Below are positions 42,455-48,396 of a DNA stretch of 64,000 nt, in pieces. Location of the stretch: the NCBI RefSeq assembly GCF_902830275.1, contig NZ_CADESW010000012.1, positions 62,001 through 126,000 of the forward strand, given 5' to 3'. How positions within the stretch are numbered: the first letter of the stretch is position 1; every line of letters starts with the position of its first letter. Both the position numbers and the translations under genes were made by a program. Below the pieces are notes generated by a model. That model was not told where the DNA came from, ran no database searches, and saw only the letters and a list, made by a program, of their open reading frames with translations. This DNA is from Burkholderia stagnalis. GTDB taxonomy: Bacteria; Pseudomonadota; Gammaproteobacteria; Burkholderiales; Burkholderiaceae.

Positions 42455-43207
42455 CTAGACGCGGCCCGCAAGATGAAAACGCGACGACGGGTGCCAGAGC
42501 TGCACCGACGTCGCGACCTGCTCTCCCACCCACGTCCGGCGCCACAGCATCAGGCACGGCTCGCCGATCTCCATCATCAGGTGCCGCCGTACCTGCTGGT
42601 CGGACTTCTGCGCATAGATCCGGAACTCGGCGCGCTGGATCGGCGCGAGCCGCACCATGTAGTGGTTCGGCGTCTCGGCCGTGAAGTCCTGCTCCAGATA
42701 GGCGGGAAACACCTTCGGATTGACGTAGCGATCCTCGAACTGGATCGGTTCGCCATCCTCGTAGTGAACGATCCGCGAATGAAATACGGGGCCGGCGGCC
42801 AGCGCAAGCGCGTCGATCGCGTGCGCGTCGTCGCTGCGCTCGAGCATCAGCACGCGCGCCGTGTGCCGGTGGCCGCGCTCGGCGATCTCGTCGGCGATGT
42901 TGCGGATCTCGAGCACGGTCGATTCATAACGCCGCGGCTCGACGAACGTGCCCGCGCCCTGGATGCGCGTCAGCACACGCTCGGCCGTCAGTTCGCGCAA
43001 CGCGCGGGACACGGTCATGCGCGCGACGCCGAACTCCTTCACGAGCTCGGCCTCGGTCGGAATCGCGCTGCCGGGCTTCCAATCGCCCGCGGCGATCCGC
43101 TGGACGACGTAGCGCTTGATCTGCTGATACGCCGGCAGTGCGCGTGCCGGCGCGTCTTCGCCGAGCGCGCGCGGGGATGGGCGGGTCACTTGCTCTGAAT
43201 GGTTCAT
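42455..43207 (-). CDS. hutC: HutC-type GntR repressor
   Basis: A protein of 250 residues from the ATG at 43207. The N-terminal winged helix-turn-helix (about 27-95) reads YQQIKRYVVQRIAAGDWKPGSAIPTEAELVKEFGVARMTVSRALRELTAERVL, and the C-terminal UTRA effector domain (about 110-245) contains VFHSRIVHYEDGEPIQFEDRYVNPKVFPAYLEQDFT, a region strongly HutC-like. HutC represses histidine-utilisation genes and is released by urocanate. It is the last gene of the leftward transporter operon and probably binds the operator at 48109-48120. A second HutC in the genome cannot be excluded. Confidence 0.88.
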   Translation of the reverse strand: MNHSEQVTRPSPRALGEDAPARALPAYQQIKRYVVQRIAAGDWKPGSAIPTEAELVKEFGVARMTVSRALRELTAERVLTRIQGAGTFVEPRRYESTVLEIRNIADEIAERGHRHTARVLMLERSDDAHAIDALALAAGPVFHSRIVHYEDGEPIQFEDRYVNPKVFPAYLEQDFTAETPNHYMVRLAPIQRAEFRIYAQKSDQQVRRHLMMEIGEPCLMLWRRTWVGEQVATSVQLWHPSSRFHLAGRV

Positions 43208-43301
43208 CTTCGCATCGGTCCATCGGTAAGGTCCCGGGCCGCGAACCAGCGGTCGGCGCATCGCGGATGGCGGCGCCGCACGCGGTCGCGGGCGAATTTC
43301 T

Positions 43302-44795
43302 CTACGATACGGGCGGTGCCGCGTCCGCGAGCAGCGCCGCTGCCGCCGCGATGTCGTCGGCGAGCGGCCGGTCGTCGCGATACGGCGGCACGCGCCCGCG
43401 CAGACGTCGCCACACCGTATCGGTCAGCGCCGCGCGGCGCGCATCGCCGGGCTGCAGGTCGTACGCCTGCGCCGCCGCGAGCAGCTCGATCGCCAGCACG
43501 CGCGTCGCATTCTCGATGATGTCGAGCGCCTTCAACGCAGCCGGCGTCGCATGGCACAGATGATCTTCCTGCAGCCCCGACGTGATGCCGCCGTCCAGGC
43601 TCGCGGGCGCCGCGAGCCGCTGGTTCTGCGCGACCAGCGCGACCGCCGTATACTGCGCGATCATGAACCCCGAACAGGTGCCGCCGGGCGCCGCAAGAAA
43701 CGCCGGCAGGCCGCTCACGAGCGGATTGACGAGGCGGTCGAGCCGGCGTTCGGCGATCGCCGCGACCTGCGCCATCGCGGCCGCGAGGCTGTCCATCGCG
43801 AGCGCAATGCCTGCGCCGACCGCATGCGCCTGCGAATGCACGCGCGGCGCGTCGCGCGTGCCCGCGACGATCGGGTTGTCGGTGACCGACGCGAGCTCGC
43901 GGTCGACCACGTCCGACGTCACGTCGAACACGTCGCGCGCCGCGCCGTGCACGTGCGGAATCGTGCGCAGGCTGAGCGGATCCTGCGTGTGCCGTCCGGC
44001 CATCGCGGCCAGCATCCCGCTGTCGGCGAGCGCGCCGCGCATCCTCGCGCCGACCCGCTCGATCCCGCGCGACACGCGCAGCGCGAGCGAACCCGCGTCG
44101 AACGCGGCGAGCTGGCCGCCGAGGTTTTCGAAGCTCATCGCGGCGATGCAGTCGGCCCAGTCGAGCAGATGCTCGGCCCGGGCGAGCGCGAGCGCCGCCA
44201 GCCCCGTCACGCAGGGCGTGCCGTTGACGAGGCTGAGCCCCTCCTTCGCGCCGAGCACGAGCGGCGCAAGCCCGATGCGGCGCAGCGCGTCACGCCCCGG
44301 CAACCGCTCGCCGCGATAGCGCGCATGGCCTTCCCCGATGCAGACGAGCGCAACGTGCGCCATGTGGGTCAGATAGCCGACCGAGCCGTGCGCGGGCACT
44401 TCGGGCAGGCAATCCGCGTCGAGCAGCGCGACGAGCTGCCTGACCACCTCGACGCGCACGCCCGAATGCCCGTGCGCATAGTTGTTGACGGCCGCCGCGA
44501 TGATCGCGCGCGTCTGCGCCGCGTCGAGCGGCGCGCCAACGCCGACCGCGTGGCTCATCAGGATGTTGCGTGACAGCGAGCTCTGCTCGCCGGGCGACAC
44601 GATCACGTCGCACAGTGCGCCGACGCCCGTGTTCACACCGTATGCGCGAATGCCGCGCGCGACGATTTCCTCGACGAGACCGCGCGCGGCGTCGATGCGC
44701 GCGAGCGTGTCGTCGGCGAGCGCGAGCGGCGCGCCGCCCGCGATTGCCGCAATCTGCCGCCAGTCGAGCGGGCGGCCGGAACGAATGACGGTCAT
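43302..44795 (-). CDS. histidine ammonia-lyase homologue lacking the MIO triad
   Basis: A protein of 497 residues that aligns with the HAL/PAL superfamily along its length: YGVNTGVG (Y52), GLSLVNGTP (N191), SVTDNP, QEDHL (E410). The expected GSVGASGDLAPLAH reads GSVG (137-140) followed directly by YLTHMAH, so Ala-Ser-Gly, which cyclises to the MIO electrophile, is missing. The active-site Tyr of QDPYSLR is Leu274. It therefore probably cannot deaminate histidine by the classical route. It may bind histidine or a relative. It lies seven bases after the ATPase gene in a HutC-linked uptake operon. Database names such as histidine ammonia-lyase would be misleading here. Confidence 0.85.
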   Translation of the reverse strand: MTVIRSGRPLDWRQIAAIAGGAPLALADDTLARIDAARGLVEEIVARGIRAYGVNTGVGALCDVIVSPGEQSSLSRNILMSHAVGVGAPLDAAQTRAIIAAAVNNYAHGHSGVRVEVVRQLVALLDADCLPEVPAHGSVGYLTHMAHVALVCIGEGHARYRGERLPGRDALRRIGLAPLVLGAKEGLSLVNGTPCVTGLAALALARAEHLLDWADCIAAMSFENLGGQLAAFDAGSLALRVSRGIERVGARMRGALADSGMLAAMAGRHTQDPLSLRTIPHVHGAARDVFDVTSDVVDRELASVTDNPIVAGTRDAPRVHSQAHAVGAGIALAMDSLAAAMAQVAAIAERRLDRLVNPLVSGLPAFLAAPGGTCSGFMIAQYTAVALVAQNQRLAAPASLDGGITSGLQEDHLCHATPAALKALDIIENATRVLAIELLAAAQAYDLQPGDARRAALTDTVWRRLRGRVPPYRDDRPLADDIAAAAALLADAAPPVS

Positions 44796-44802
44796 CGTGG
44801 CC

Positions 44803-45594
44803 TCAGTGCGCGGAGCGGTCTTGATGGCTCGACACGAACTGGCGGAACCGCTCCGATTTCAACCCGCCGAACACCTCGTCCGGCGTGCCGTCCGAGTCGA
44901 CCTCGCCCTGATGCAGGAACATCACGCGATTCGACACATGGCGCGCGAACCCCATCTCGTGCGTGACGACCAGCATCGTGCGCCCCTCCTCCGCGAGCGA
45001 GCGCATCACGCGCAGCACCTCGCCGACGAGCTCGGGGTCGAGCGCCGACGTCGGCTCGTCGAACAGCATCACCTTCGGATGCATCGCCAGCGCACGCGCG
45101 ATCGCGACGCGCTGCTGCTGGCCGCCGGACAGGTGCGCGGGATAGTGGCCGCGCTTGTCGGCGAGGCCGACGCGGGCCAAGAGCGCCTCCGCCTCCTCGA
45201 CCGCTTCCGCGCGGCTGCGTTTCTGCACGCGCAGCGGGCCTTCGACGAGATTGTCGAGCACCGTCATGTGCGACCACAGATTGAAGTTCTGGAACACCAT
45301 GCCGAGCTGCGAGCGGATCCGGTCGACCTGGCGGCGGTCGCTCGGATGCAGCTTGCCGTCGCGGGCGCGCGCCATCTTGAGCGTCTCGCCCGCGAGCGCG
45401 ACCGAGCCGTCGTCGGGCGTCTCGAGCAGGTTCAGGCAGCGCAGGAACGTGCTCTTGCCCGAGCCGCTCGCGCCGAGGATCGAGATGACGTCACCTTCGT
45501 GCGCGTCGAGCGAAATGCCCTTCAGCACGTGATGGCTGCCGAACGACTTGTGGATGTTCCTGACCGACAGGGCGACGGGCGCGGACGTGTTCAT
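44803..45594 (-). CDS. hisP: amino-acid ABC transporter ATP-binding protein, HisP type
   Basis: A protein of 263 residues. Walker A is GASGSGKST, the Q-loop region is [18 protein letters not shown], the signature is [17 protein letters not shown], and Walker B is [14 protein letters not shown], then the H-loop [15 protein letters not shown]. The polar amino-acid (HisP/GlnQ) subtype is clear from [11 protein letters not shown] and the 28-residue insert after the first strand. It energises import by the neighbouring permeases. Confidence 0.93.
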
Positions 45595-45622: not shown

Positions 45623-46363
45623 TCACGGGGTGATGCGGCGCGCTTCGGCGGCCGGGGCGGTTTTCGCGCCGCCCGGCAGCGGCGCGCGCAGGTGACGCGA
45701 CAGGCGCCATTCGAGCGCGCCCAGCGCGCGGACGATCAGGAAGTTCAGGCACAGGTAGATGAGCGCCGCGCACACGAACACCTCGGTCGTCCGATAGGTC
45801 TGCTGGATGATCTGCTGCGCGATGCCGGTCACTTCCCACACCGTCACGAGGCTCGCGAGCGCCGTCGACTTGACGAGCAGCACGGCTTCGGTCGAGTACG
45901 CGGGCAGGCACTGGCGCAATGCGATCGGGCCGATCACGCGCCGCAGCAGCGCGAAGCCCGACAGGCCGATCGAATAGCCGGCCTCGATCTGCCCGACCGG
46001 CACGGCCATCAGGCCGCCACGGATGATCTCCGCCGTATAGCCGGCCGTGCAGAGCGCGAGCGACAGCACCGCGCAGATGTACGGCTCGCGCAGCACCGGC
46101 CACAGGAAGCTCTCGCGGATCACGCCGAACTGGCCGAGCCCGTAGTAGACGAGAAACATCTGGATCAGCAGCGGCGAGCCGCGAAAGATCAGGATATAGA
46201 CGCGCGCGATGCGGTTCGGCAGCCAGTGCGGCGACACGCGCATCGCGACGACGACGAGCGACAGCAGGCCGCCGAGCACGAGCGACGCGACGAACAGGCT
46301 GAGCGTCATCGGCACGGCCGCGAGCAGCTGGCGCACCGTGTCGGCGAGGAATGCGAAATCCAT
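45623..46363 (-). CDS. hisM: amino-acid ABC transporter permease, HisM type
   Basis: A protein of 246 residues. The ATG at 46363 lies seven bases after GGAG; the ATG at 46369 is too close to it. Five membrane helices and the EAA-type motif ([42 protein letters not shown]) mark the polar amino-acid permease family. Partner of the other permease encoded just upstream. Confidence 0.92.
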
Positions 46364-46379
46364 GTTCATGCTCCGTGCG

Positions 46380-47102
46380 TCAGTTGCGTGCGAAATTGCG
46401 TCGGAACGAGCGCCCGACGTACGCTTCCGCGCGATTGAACACGCGGTTCGACAGGCCCGTCATCAGCAGGTACAGCGCACCGCCCGCGACGAAGAACACG
46501 AAATACTGATGCGTCGAATTGGCCGCGATCTGGCTCGTGCGCAGCAGCTCGGCGAGGCCCGTGACCGAAATCAGCGCGGAATCCTTGAGGCTGAGCTGCC
46601 ACACGTTGCCGATGCCCGGCAACGCGAAGCGCAGCACCTGCGGAACCAGGATGCGGCGCAGCACCATCGACGACGGCATGCCGATCGAGCGGGCTGCCTC
46701 CAGTTCGCCTTTCGACACCGCGAGCACGGCGCCGCGATAGACCTCGGCCTGGTACGCGCCCGAGATCATCCCGACCGCGAGCGCGCCGATCACGAACGGC
46801 GGCACGCCGACGAAGCCCTCCGCGCCAAACCATTGCCCGACGGTCGTGACGAGCGTCGAGCCGCCGAAATAGAACAGATAGATGACGAGCAGCTCGGGCA
46901 CGCCGCGAAACACGGTCGTATACAGATCACCCAGCACGCGCGCCACGCGATACCGCGACAGCTTCGCCGCGGCGACCAGCGCGCCGAACACGGCGCCGAC
47001 GGCCAGCGCGACGAGCGTCAGCGCCACCGTCATCAGGGCGGCGAGCAGCAGCACGCCGCCCCAGCCGTCCGTTCCGAAACCCAGCATTTCGATGAGCGCC
47101 AT
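46380..47102 (-). CDS. hisQ: amino-acid ABC transporter permease, HisQ type
   Basis: A protein of 240 residues from the ATG at 47102 behind CAGGGGA. Five membrane helices; the family motif reads YQAEVYRGAVLAVSKGELEAARSIGMPSSMVLRRILVPQVLRFALPGIGN. With HisM-type and HisP-type partners it forms a His/Lys/Arg/ornithine class importer. Confidence 0.93.
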   Translation of the reverse strand: MALIEMLGFGTDGWGGVLLLAALMTVALTLVALAVGAVFGALVAAAKLSRYRVARVLGDLYTTVFRGVPELLVIYLFYFGGSTLVTTVGQWFGAEGFVGVPPFVIGALAVGMISGAYQAEVYRGAVLAVSKGELEAARSIGMPSSMVLRRILVPQVLRFALPGIGNVWQLSLKDSALISVTGLAELLRTSQIAANSTHQYFVFFVAGGALYLLMTGLSNRVFNRAEAYVGRSFRRNFARN

Positions 47103-47183: not shown

Positions 47184-48050
47184 TTACGGCGTGACGTCCG
47201 TCTTGAACCACTTGTCGGCGAGCTTCTTCACGGTGCCGTCCGCGAGCGCCGCGCCGATCGCCGTATCGAACTTCGCCTTCAGGTCGGCATCCTGCTTGCG
47301 GAACGCGAGCCCTTCGCCGGGCCCCCAGATCGGGCCGCCGAGCTTCGGGCCAGCCAGCACGATCGACGCGGTTTCCTTCTTCCCGGCGTTCGCCGCGTAG
47401 TACGTGACGTCGTCGAACGACGCGTCGATGCGGCCCGCGACGAGATCGAGATCACGCTCGGGCGACGTCTTGTACACGCGGATCGTCGCGACGTCCTTGA
47501 AACTGTCGTTGATGAACTTCGTATAGACCGTGCCCGACTGGATGCCGATCGTCTTGCCCTTCAGCTGCTTGCGCAGCGTGTCGACCGTCGGCTTGTCGGC
47601 CTTCGCATCGCCGGTCAGCTTGACGACCGGCGCGGCGGCGTCGCTCTTCGGGATGACCTTCGTGTCGGTGACCGCGAAGGTCGCGGGCGTGGCCGCGTAC
47701 GGCCGCGAGAACGCGAGGATCTTCTCGCGCTCGGGCGTGATCGAGATCGCATCCATCAGGATGTCGAACTTGCCGGCCTGCAGGCCGGGAATCATGCCGT
47801 CCCAGTCCTGCGCGACCATGTTGCACTGCAGCTTGATGCGTGCGCACACGTCGGCGAGCAGTTCCGGCTCGAAGCCGCCGAGCTTGCCGCCCGGCAGCGT
47901 CAGGTTCCACGGTGCGTAGCCGCCTTCGAGGGCGACCGTGACCGTCTTCCATTCCTTCGCCTGTCCCGGCACCGGCACCGCGAGGGCGGCGGCGAGGCTG
48001 ACGATCGCGGCGATCGTCCGGACTCCCGATTTGATTGGCTTGCCGTACAC
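47184..48050 (-). CDS. hisJ: periplasmic amino-acid binding protein, HisJ/ArgT type
   Basis: A protein of 288 residues. The GTG at 48050 is chosen because GGAG lies seven bases upstream and it leaves a normal signal peptide (cleaved near GQAKEW); upstream starts put extra residues ahead of the signal. The mature fold shows VALEGGYAPWNLTLPGGKLGGFEPELLADVCARIKLQCNMVAQDWDGMIPGLQAGKFD and ISITPEREKILAFSRPY, typical of lysine/arginine/ornithine/histidine binding proteins. It is the first gene of the operon and delivers ligand to the permeases. The exact ligand could be histidine, urocanate or another basic compound. Confidence 0.9.
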   Translation of the reverse strand: MYGKPIKSGVRTIAAIVSLAAALAVPVPGQAKEWKTVTVALEGGYAPWNLTLPGGKLGGFEPELLADVCARIKLQCNMVAQDWDGMIPGLQAGKFDILMDAISITPEREKILAFSRPYAATPATFAVTDTKVIPKSDAAAPVVKLTGDAKADKPTVDTLRKQLKGKTIGIQSGTVYTKFINDSFKDVATIRVYKTSPERDLDLVAGRIDASFDDVTYYAANAGKKETASIVLAGPKLGGPIWGPGEGLAFRKQDADLKAKFDTAIGAALADGTVKKLADKWFKTDVTP

Positions 48051-48108
48051 GTCATTTCTCCTTTCGTTGAAGACCCATCCCGTCAAGCAACCGAACCGCA
48101 TCGGGAAT

Positions 48109-48120
48109 TTGTATATACAA
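48109..48120 (-). promoter_or_regulatory. HutC-like operator of the transporter operon
   Basis: TTGTATATACAA is a perfect 12-bp palindrome, and it extends to CTTGTATATACAA on the side away from hisJ. It matches the HutC operator core (CTTGTATATACAAG) known from Klebsiella and Pseudomonas. It lies about 60 bases before the hisJ GTG start. TATACA within it could serve as the -10 box, so a bound repressor would block RNA polymerase. Confidence 0.85.
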
Positions 48121-48396
48121 GCATGCGGCGAAAAAAAATTCGCCACAAGCGCTGATCAAAAAAAAGGCAGAAACCGAGGGAAAGCCCCTATAAAAAGGCT
48201 GTCAGACAGGCAATGCGGGGAGCGGCGAGGGGGTGACAAGCGGTCGCCGCGCGACGGCCGGCGTCAATAATGTCTAGACAAATCGGGGAAAGATTGCGCG
48301 CTTCAAGGCTCGGGAAGCAGGCAAGCGGCATCCGGGCGCTGCGCGAACGGAGGCGCCCGCGAGAACGCGGATGGGGTAAATCGATGGGGACAGATT

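What the first reader, a model, noticed from the sequence alone, without database searches (positions are those of the whole stretch)
43302..44795. Ammonia-lyase homologue with precise loss of the MIO tripeptide
The conserved GSVG-ASG-DLAPLAH is GSVG-YLTHMAH: exactly three residues are gone, with alignment intact on both sides (codons around 44376). The active-site Tyr of QDPYSLR is also Leu274, while Y52, N191, R277 and E410 remain. The reading frame and rest of the fold are intact, so this is a retained protein with a changed job, not a decaying gene. It lies in a HutC-controlled importer operon, suggesting a binding, sensing or alternative role on histidine-like compounds.
Basis: partly seen in the sequence, partly recalled or inferred. 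Interest (0 to 1): 0.82.

Follow-up and report, generated by a model that had tools for sequence, protein, structure and literature searches.

The report
Cofactor-less lyase, probably for histidine betaine
This bacterial gene is annotated in relatives as a histidine-breaking enzyme but lacks that enzyme's essential built-in cofactor, and its relatives and gene neighbours suggest that it instead splits trimethylamine from a methylated histidine such as hercynine and feeds the product into the normal histidine-degradation pathway.

Summary
ORF 43302-44795(-) is an intact, constrained PF00221 lyase with GSVG-YLTHMAH: a net three residues are missing and there is no MIO triad. All 88 aligned clade rows (87 distinct) share GYLxH and Leu274 and keep HAL residues Y52, H82, N191, Q271, R277, M378 and E410.

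MIO loss in this fold is already known from ergothionase, a trimethylamine-lyase. The window clade is not the known ergothionase family: those enzymes form a separate clade with another loop and their own lysines, and 8 of 299 Burkholderiaceae genomes carry both genes. Of 10 ergothionase-type loci, 6 hold the thio-pathway genes; of 80 window-type loci none does, while 29 hold hut genes. The four HutU neighbours tested score as genuine urocanate hydratase. Nine of 80 loci carry a glycine-betaine-type binding protein. An exact HutC-type operator lies upstream of the window operon.

Best reading (0.65): an MIO-independent trimethylamine-lyase acting on an N-methylated histidine, most likely hercynine, giving urocanate, which HutC senses and HutUIFG degrade. 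The substrate is inferred, not shown. New variant of a known kind.

The parts
43302..44795 (-). MIO-less aromatic amino-acid lyase homologue (497 aa), proposed hercynine trimethylamine-lyase; annotated histidine ammonia-lyase in relatives
44355..44387 (-). GSVGYLTHMAH loop (residues 137-147), where HAL has GSVG-ASG-DLAPLAH
42455..43261 (-). HutC-type GntR/UTRA repressor, downstream of the lyase on the same strand
   Evidence: TIGR02018 282.3 bits against cut-off 220; Pfam GntR + UTRA
44803..45594 (-). polar amino-acid type ABC ATPase (HisP-like)
45623..46369 (-). ABC permease (ArtM/HisM-like)
46380..47102 (-). ABC permease (HisQ-like)
47184..48146 (-). family 3 solute-binding protein; the ORF as listed; the real start is probably the GTG at 48050, after an AAAGGAG
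48109..48120 (.). perfect palindrome TTGTATATACAA matching the published HutC operator TGTA-N2-TACA
   Evidence: 1 match, 0.08 expected at up to 2 mismatches; motif from PMC12977541, passages read

Best explanation
The operon imports and splits a quaternary or N-methylated histidine, most likely hercynine (N-alpha-trimethylhistidine, histidine betaine). The lyase removes trimethylamine by beta-elimination without an MIO cofactor and yields urocanate. Urocanate relieves repression by the operon's own HutC and is degraded by HutU, HutI, HutF and HutG, encoded elsewhere in this genome. Shown: MIO loss, retained HAL pocket residues, clade, operator-like palindrome, gene neighbourhoods. Inferred: substrate, product, inducer and mechanism. 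Mechanistic rationale (general chemistry, recalled): trimethylamine is a good leaving group and a quaternary nitrogen has no lone pair to attack MIO, so the cofactor is dispensable, as in ergothionase.
For: 1) HAL's substrate and catalytic residues Y52, H82, N191, Q271, R277, M378 and E410 are invariant in 88 of 88 clade rows, 87 distinct; Ser81-His82 and this Met mark HAL selectivity (PMC11432326, passages). 2) MIO and Tyr280 are lost together, as in ergothionase (position 274 is Leu in 88 of 88 clade rows and 11 of 11 ergothionase-type rows). 3) Ergothionase-family lysines are absent: position 382 is Tyr in 88 of 88, Lys in 10 of 11 ergothionase-type and Val in 15 of 15 HutH rows. 4) Of 80 loci, hutU/I/F/G lie within the fetched flanks in 29 and thio-pathway markers in 0; of 10 ergothionase-type loci 6 have the thio-pathway. 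Four HutU neighbours tested score 945-976 bits as hutU and stay under the thiourocanate-hydratase cut-offs; the one tested beside an ergothionase in L155 scores 1045 against cut-off 930. 5) 63 of 63 window-type genomes have a HutU-family match at E <= 1e-100, against 154 of the other 236. 6) ProX/glycine-betaine-type binding proteins in 9 of 80 loci (one scored). 7) HutC-like regulator in 72 of 80 loci; exact palindrome in the window and a one-mismatch copy before the genome's own hutH operon. 8) This genome already has a HutH operon and a HisJ/HisP-type importer with its own palindrome, so plain histidine seems already served.
Against: No assay of this family was found. 51 of 80 loci, and the window, have no hut catabolic gene in the stretch examined. 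Most binding proteins (59 of 80 loci) are ordinary family-3 types, not betaine types. One ergothionase-type locus (L153) also sits beside genuine hutU, hutI, hutF and a HutC-like gene, so hut adjacency does not by itself fix the substrate. The HutU search also scores thiourocanate hydratase (702.7 bits), and two of the 63 genomes have weaker best matches (G458 1.7e-220, G423 3.5e-138). 8 of 80 loci lack a HutC-like gene and 56 of 80 lack the palindrome at one mismatch. Some members lie elsewhere: L072 beside housekeeping genes; L038, L040 and L113 beside a desaturase and molybdenum-hydroxylase subunits. Enzymes that use trimethylamine were not searched for.
Confidence: 0.65

Rival explanations
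1. It is a lyase for another modified histidine (N-alpha-dimethylhistidine, ergothioneine sulfonate or a similar compound), still MIO-free and still feeding the hut pathway.
For: The pocket keeps the imidazole and carboxylate residues, but nothing here fixes the amine substituents; an ergothionase-type gene beside genuine hut genes (L153) shows that related enzymes occur in such settings.
Against: Glycine-betaine-type binding proteins in 9 of 80 loci point to a quaternary amine; none of the five sulfur-pathway markers tested in 80 loci; no ergothionase lysine at 382.
Confidence: 0.15
2. It is an ordinary ergothionase (ergothioneine trimethylamine-lyase).
For: Both lack MIO and have Leu for Tyr280; same fold (6s7j TM-score 0.90); one MIO-less group is not rejected by the AU test (p 0.22).
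Against: Separate clade (100/100) and different loop; closer to HAL than to 6s7j in sequence (395 against 237 bits); 8 of 299 genomes hold both genes; thio-pathway markers in 0 of 80 loci.
Confidence: 0.06
3. It is a non-catalytic binding or sensing protein.
For: Loss of the cofactor HAL needs; location beside a regulator and an importer.
Against: Residues found essential in a characterised HAL are invariant; the lyase is grouped with hutU/I/F/G without hutH in L069; the operon already has a HutC sensor and a solute-binding protein.
Confidence: 0.08
4. It is an active histidine ammonia-lyase that works on plain histidine without MIO.
For: Histidine pocket kept and hut neighbours.
Against: No MIO and no Tyr280; below the HutH model cut-off (450.5 against 539.15 bits); canonical HutH lies in the same locus in 20 of 80 loci and elsewhere in this genome.
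Confidence: 0.06

Closest known systems
Histidine ammonia-lyase HutH (EC 4.3.1.3; PDB 1b8f, 7tqr)
   Same: Fold (TM-score 0.92 to P. putida HAL), 38-39% identity to that enzyme and about 41-42% to Burkholderia HutH, histidine-pocket residues, hut neighbourhood in part of the loci, HutC
   Different: No ASG/MIO; Tyr280 to Leu, Phe329 to Ala; under the HutH model cut-off; coexists with HutH in this genome
Ergothionase, ergothioneine trimethylamine-lyase (PDB 6s7j; the Burkholderia sp. HME13 enzyme was not available for comparison)
   Same: No MIO, Tyr280 to Leu, retained Tyr and Glu, family PF00221
   Different: Loop one residue shorter than HAL instead of three; has NKD and (Q/E)K lysines that are absent here; in 6 of 10 loci beside the thio-pathway genes
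Sinorhizobium hutXWV-hutH2 type loci (names and histidine/betaine transport recalled, not read; PMC3410850 passage, only lists hutH2 among putative targets of selection)
   Same: Glycine-betaine-type ABC importer next to a clade member, with HutC and HutF
   Different: The lyase there is annotated histidine ammonia-lyase; its identity with hutH2 was not verified

Membership tests
Histidine ammonia-lyase (HutH) | ASG triad forming MIO | tested here: not met
Histidine ammonia-lyase (HutH) | Score over the TIGR01225 / NF006871 cut-offs | tested here: not met
   450.5 against 539.15 and 468.3 against 524 bits
Histidine ammonia-lyase (HutH) | Y52, H82, N191, R277 and E410 equivalents | tested here: met
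   roles from PMC11432326 passages
Histidine ammonia-lyase (HutH) | Ammonia released from histidine | not testable with these tools
   needs an assay
Aromatic amino-acid lyase superfamily (PF00221) | Pfam gathering score and fold | tested here: met
Ergothionase | No MIO triad | tested here: met
   absence of MIO in ergothionase also stated in PMC13405746 passages
Ergothionase | Family-specific lysines (NKD; K at window position 382) | tested here: not met
   their catalytic role is recalled, from no call
Ergothionase | Groups with 6s7j rather than with HutH | tested here: inconclusive
   separate clade at 100/100, but one MIO-less group not rejected, p-AU 0.22
Ergothionase | Neighbouring thiourocanate hydratase or thiohydantoin desulfurase | tested here: not met
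   0 of 80 loci, against 6 of 10 ergothionase-type loci
Ergothionase | Ergothioneine turnover | not testable with these tools
   needs an assay
HutC repressor (42455-43261) | TIGR02018 cut-off | tested here: met
   282.3 bits against 220
HutC repressor (42455-43261) | TGTA-N2-TACA operator upstream of the operon | tested here: met
   48109-48120, exact; binding itself not testable here

The most novel reading that the evidence does not exclude
A so far undescribed family of MIO-independent hercynine (histidine-betaine) trimethylamine-lyases in Burkholderia and rhizobia, today named histidine ammonia-lyase in databases, which forms its own branch into histidine degradation under a urocanate-sensing HutC, and whose cofactor loss arose separately from that of ergothionase.
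Probability: 0.45. Interest if true: 0.75.

Novelty: new variant of a known kind. Interest (0 to 1): 0.6.

Why it matters
Hercynine is the precursor of the widespread antioxidant ergothioneine and is made by fungi and actinobacteria (recalled). My searches of open-access papers for its breakdown (listings only) showed no described gene for it. If the reading is right, a group of soil and root bacteria has a dedicated route for hercynine, another source of trimethylamine is identified, and many genes now called hutH are misnamed. It also gives a second MIO-less clade of this fold for asking what replaces the cofactor when the leaving group is good.

Tried and rejected
Ergothionase as the identity: my first guess from memory, rejected as the best reading. 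Independent loss of MIO: favoured by the tree and by the different loops but not shown, since the AU test does not reject a single MIO-less group. Sequence-decay reading: rejected by dN/dS 0.15-0.27 and by open frames of 488 aa or more in all 87 relatives extracted. Looking for the T. denticola loop with A1 and with a short piece did not print 6s7j; an ergothionase-like protein from L140 did. The gene caller was a simple home-made one, so neighbour lists beyond the tblastn markers are approximate; it missed the lyase in 3 of 10 ergothionase loci (L156, L157, L159), which I then took by coordinates. It counts as one locus, and the 88 aligned rows hold 87 distinct sequences.

Papers: DOIs for the ergothionase structure, the five-step pathway (DOI from memory), the sulfonate pathway and the HME13 enzyme returned nothing; what I say of their content is recalled. 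Peng et al. 2022 on MIO enzymes (PMC9002059): passages only; the term 'ergothion' does not occur in it.

Full report

A clade, not a mutant. All 80 show GS[VA]GYL[TSV]H; they come from Burkholderia, Paraburkholderia, Caballeronia, Trinickia, rhizobia, Labrys, Kaistia, Pleomorphomonas, Pseudomonas and gammaproteobacterial MAGs, among others. dN/dS of the window gene is 0.15-0.27 against nine relatives. In Burkholderiaceae 63 of 299 genomes have it (E <= 1e-130).

MIO-less lyases are known. PMC13405746 (passages read) states that ergothionase lacks MIO. The T. denticola ergothionase chain (6s7j) reads SSIG-EGDI-TTLSH, one residue shorter than HAL, has the same Leu for Tyr280, and carries lysines in WNKDK and IQKTF. 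A three-sequence profile (A3) found this family in 19 of 299 Burkholderiaceae genomes at E <= 1e-85 and not in the window's own; 8 genomes carry both types. The own genome has three PF00221 genes: canonical HutH, another ASG-bearing lyase (perhaps of the aryl-polyene/TAL kind, recalled), and this one.

Contrast of neighbourhoods. Of 10 ergothionase-type loci fetched (out of 19 genomes), 6 contain homologues of thiourocanate hydratase, thiohydantoin desulfurase and hydantoin-5-propionate amidohydrolase (families named for proteins of L154 and L155; the other loci by tblastn); two of these, L154 and L155, also have sulfide-quinone reductase-like and persulfide dioxygenase-like genes; one (L153) has hutU, hutI and hutF instead; three (L160, L161, L162) have none of these markers, although L162 has a HutC-like gene. 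Of 80 window-type loci none has a thio-pathway marker, 29 have hutU, hutI, hutF or hutG, 20 have hutU and 20 canonical hutH. Five loci have hutU but no hutH in the stretch (L069, L070, L071, L079, L096). In L069 the order is importer, lyase, hutU, hutI, hutF, hutG; its genome (handle G155) has a single HutU-family match, so its only HutU appears to be the one beside the lyase, while its canonical HutH lies on another contig. HutU proteins from four loci (L037, L069, L071, L092) score 945-976 bits as hutU and 663-708 bits on the thio and S-methyl-thio models, under their cut-offs of 930 and 880. All 63 window-type genomes have a HutU-family match, against 154 of the other 236 (Fisher p 1.4e-10, not corrected for kinship). 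The model also catches thiourocanate hydratase at about 700 bits; 61 of the 63 best matches are below 1e-270, which fits genuine HutU, and two are weaker (G458 1.7e-220, G423 3.5e-138).

Import and control. A HutC-like regulator lies in 72 of 80 loci, a family-3 binding protein in 59, and a ProX/glycine-betaine-type binding protein in 9, all from Rhizobiales (the S. meliloti L039 protein scored 110.8 bits on the ProX model, under its cut-off of 215). The window has one exact TTGTATATACAA, 58 bases before the likely start of the binding protein. HutC binds TGTA-N2-TACA, and histidine or urocanate is named as inducer in Pseudomonas (PMC12977541, passages read). Copies with at most one mismatch occur in 24 of 80 loci (28 sites; none in one Markov draw of each), mostly just before the binding-protein gene and, in L069 and L071, also just before hutU; the 56 loci without one include the Rhizobium, Sinorhizobium/Ensifer and Agrobacterium loci. 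In the whole 8.03 Mb genome there are 10 such sites, the window's included, with 0 for the reversed control. One lies before the canonical operon hutH-hutC-hutU-hutI-hutF-hutG. Of four further sites looked at, three lie at the start of a HisJ-type binding protein of a HisJ/HisP-type transporter, a ProY-like permease and an NCS1-like permease, and one beside a protein without a family match; the remaining four were not examined.

Active site. In a characterised HAL, Y52, H82, N194 and E411 are essential, Q274, R280 and F325 contribute, Y277 may assist the Glu, and F325 may stabilise the cation; Ser81-His82 and a conserved Met mark selectivity (PMC11432326, passages read). The window clade keeps all of these except the Tyr (Leu274) and the Phe (Ala325 in 87 of 88 rows), the residues linked there to the Glu and to the cationic intermediate. 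Position 382 is Tyr in 88 of 88 clade rows, Val in 15 of 15 HutH (14 of them from the clade's own loci) and Lys in 10 of 11 ergothionase-type rows; Y141, in the former MIO loop, is also invariant. I propose, without proof, that Y141 and Y382 help to hold the trimethylammonium group.

Evolution. In a tree of 66 sequences the window clade (30 rows) and the ergothionase type (11 rows) each lie on one side of a branch at 100/100, and the window clade joins HutH and most of the other ASG enzymes at 96/85. The AU test does not reject a single MIO-less group (p 0.22), and some branches are long, so one loss or two stays open.

Conclusion. The best-supported mechanism is MIO-independent elimination of trimethylamine from an N-methylated histidine, most likely hercynine, to urocanate. 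The substrate is inference from pocket, neighbours and importer type. My searches of open-access papers gave 0, 9, 5 and 3 papers, and no hercynine lyase shows in their titles or abstract openings; apart from passages of PMC13405746 and PMC7653990 I did not read their texts, and subscription papers were not covered, so prior description cannot be excluded.

Noticed in passing
L139:6778-8490, L140:7155-8813: Ergothionase-like proteins (loops GSIGDADI and GSVGEADI) with an N-terminal hydrophobic, signal-like segment in two unnamed Burkholderiales: possibly periplasmic ergothionases.
   Followed up: partly
L153:3405-10923: An ergothionase-family gene beside genuine hutU, hutI, hutF and a HutC-like gene instead of the thio-pathway genes; it may have another substrate.
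   Followed up: partly
L038:10049-17745, L040:10050-17746, L113:8049-15750: Clade member between a fatty-acid desaturase family protein and a cytochrome c / 2Fe-2S / molybdopterin hydroxylase set, with a PhnD-type binding protein; no HutC-like gene in L113. Purpose unknown.
   Followed up: partly
L164-L166 (own genome): Further TTGTATATACAA-like palindromes at the starts of an NCS1-like permease, a ProY-like permease and a HisJ-type binding protein gene: a likely wider HutC regulon.
   Followed up: partly
L081:6365-7525 and 16 other loci: A DAO-family FAD oxidoreductase recurs near the lyase in 17 loci; it might handle methylated amines.
   Followed up: no
L072:3897-13417: In a gammaproteobacterial MAG the lyase gene sits beside tsaD, dnaG and a methyltransferase gene, without the importer or HutC; L073 and L074 share these gene clusters.
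   Followed up: no
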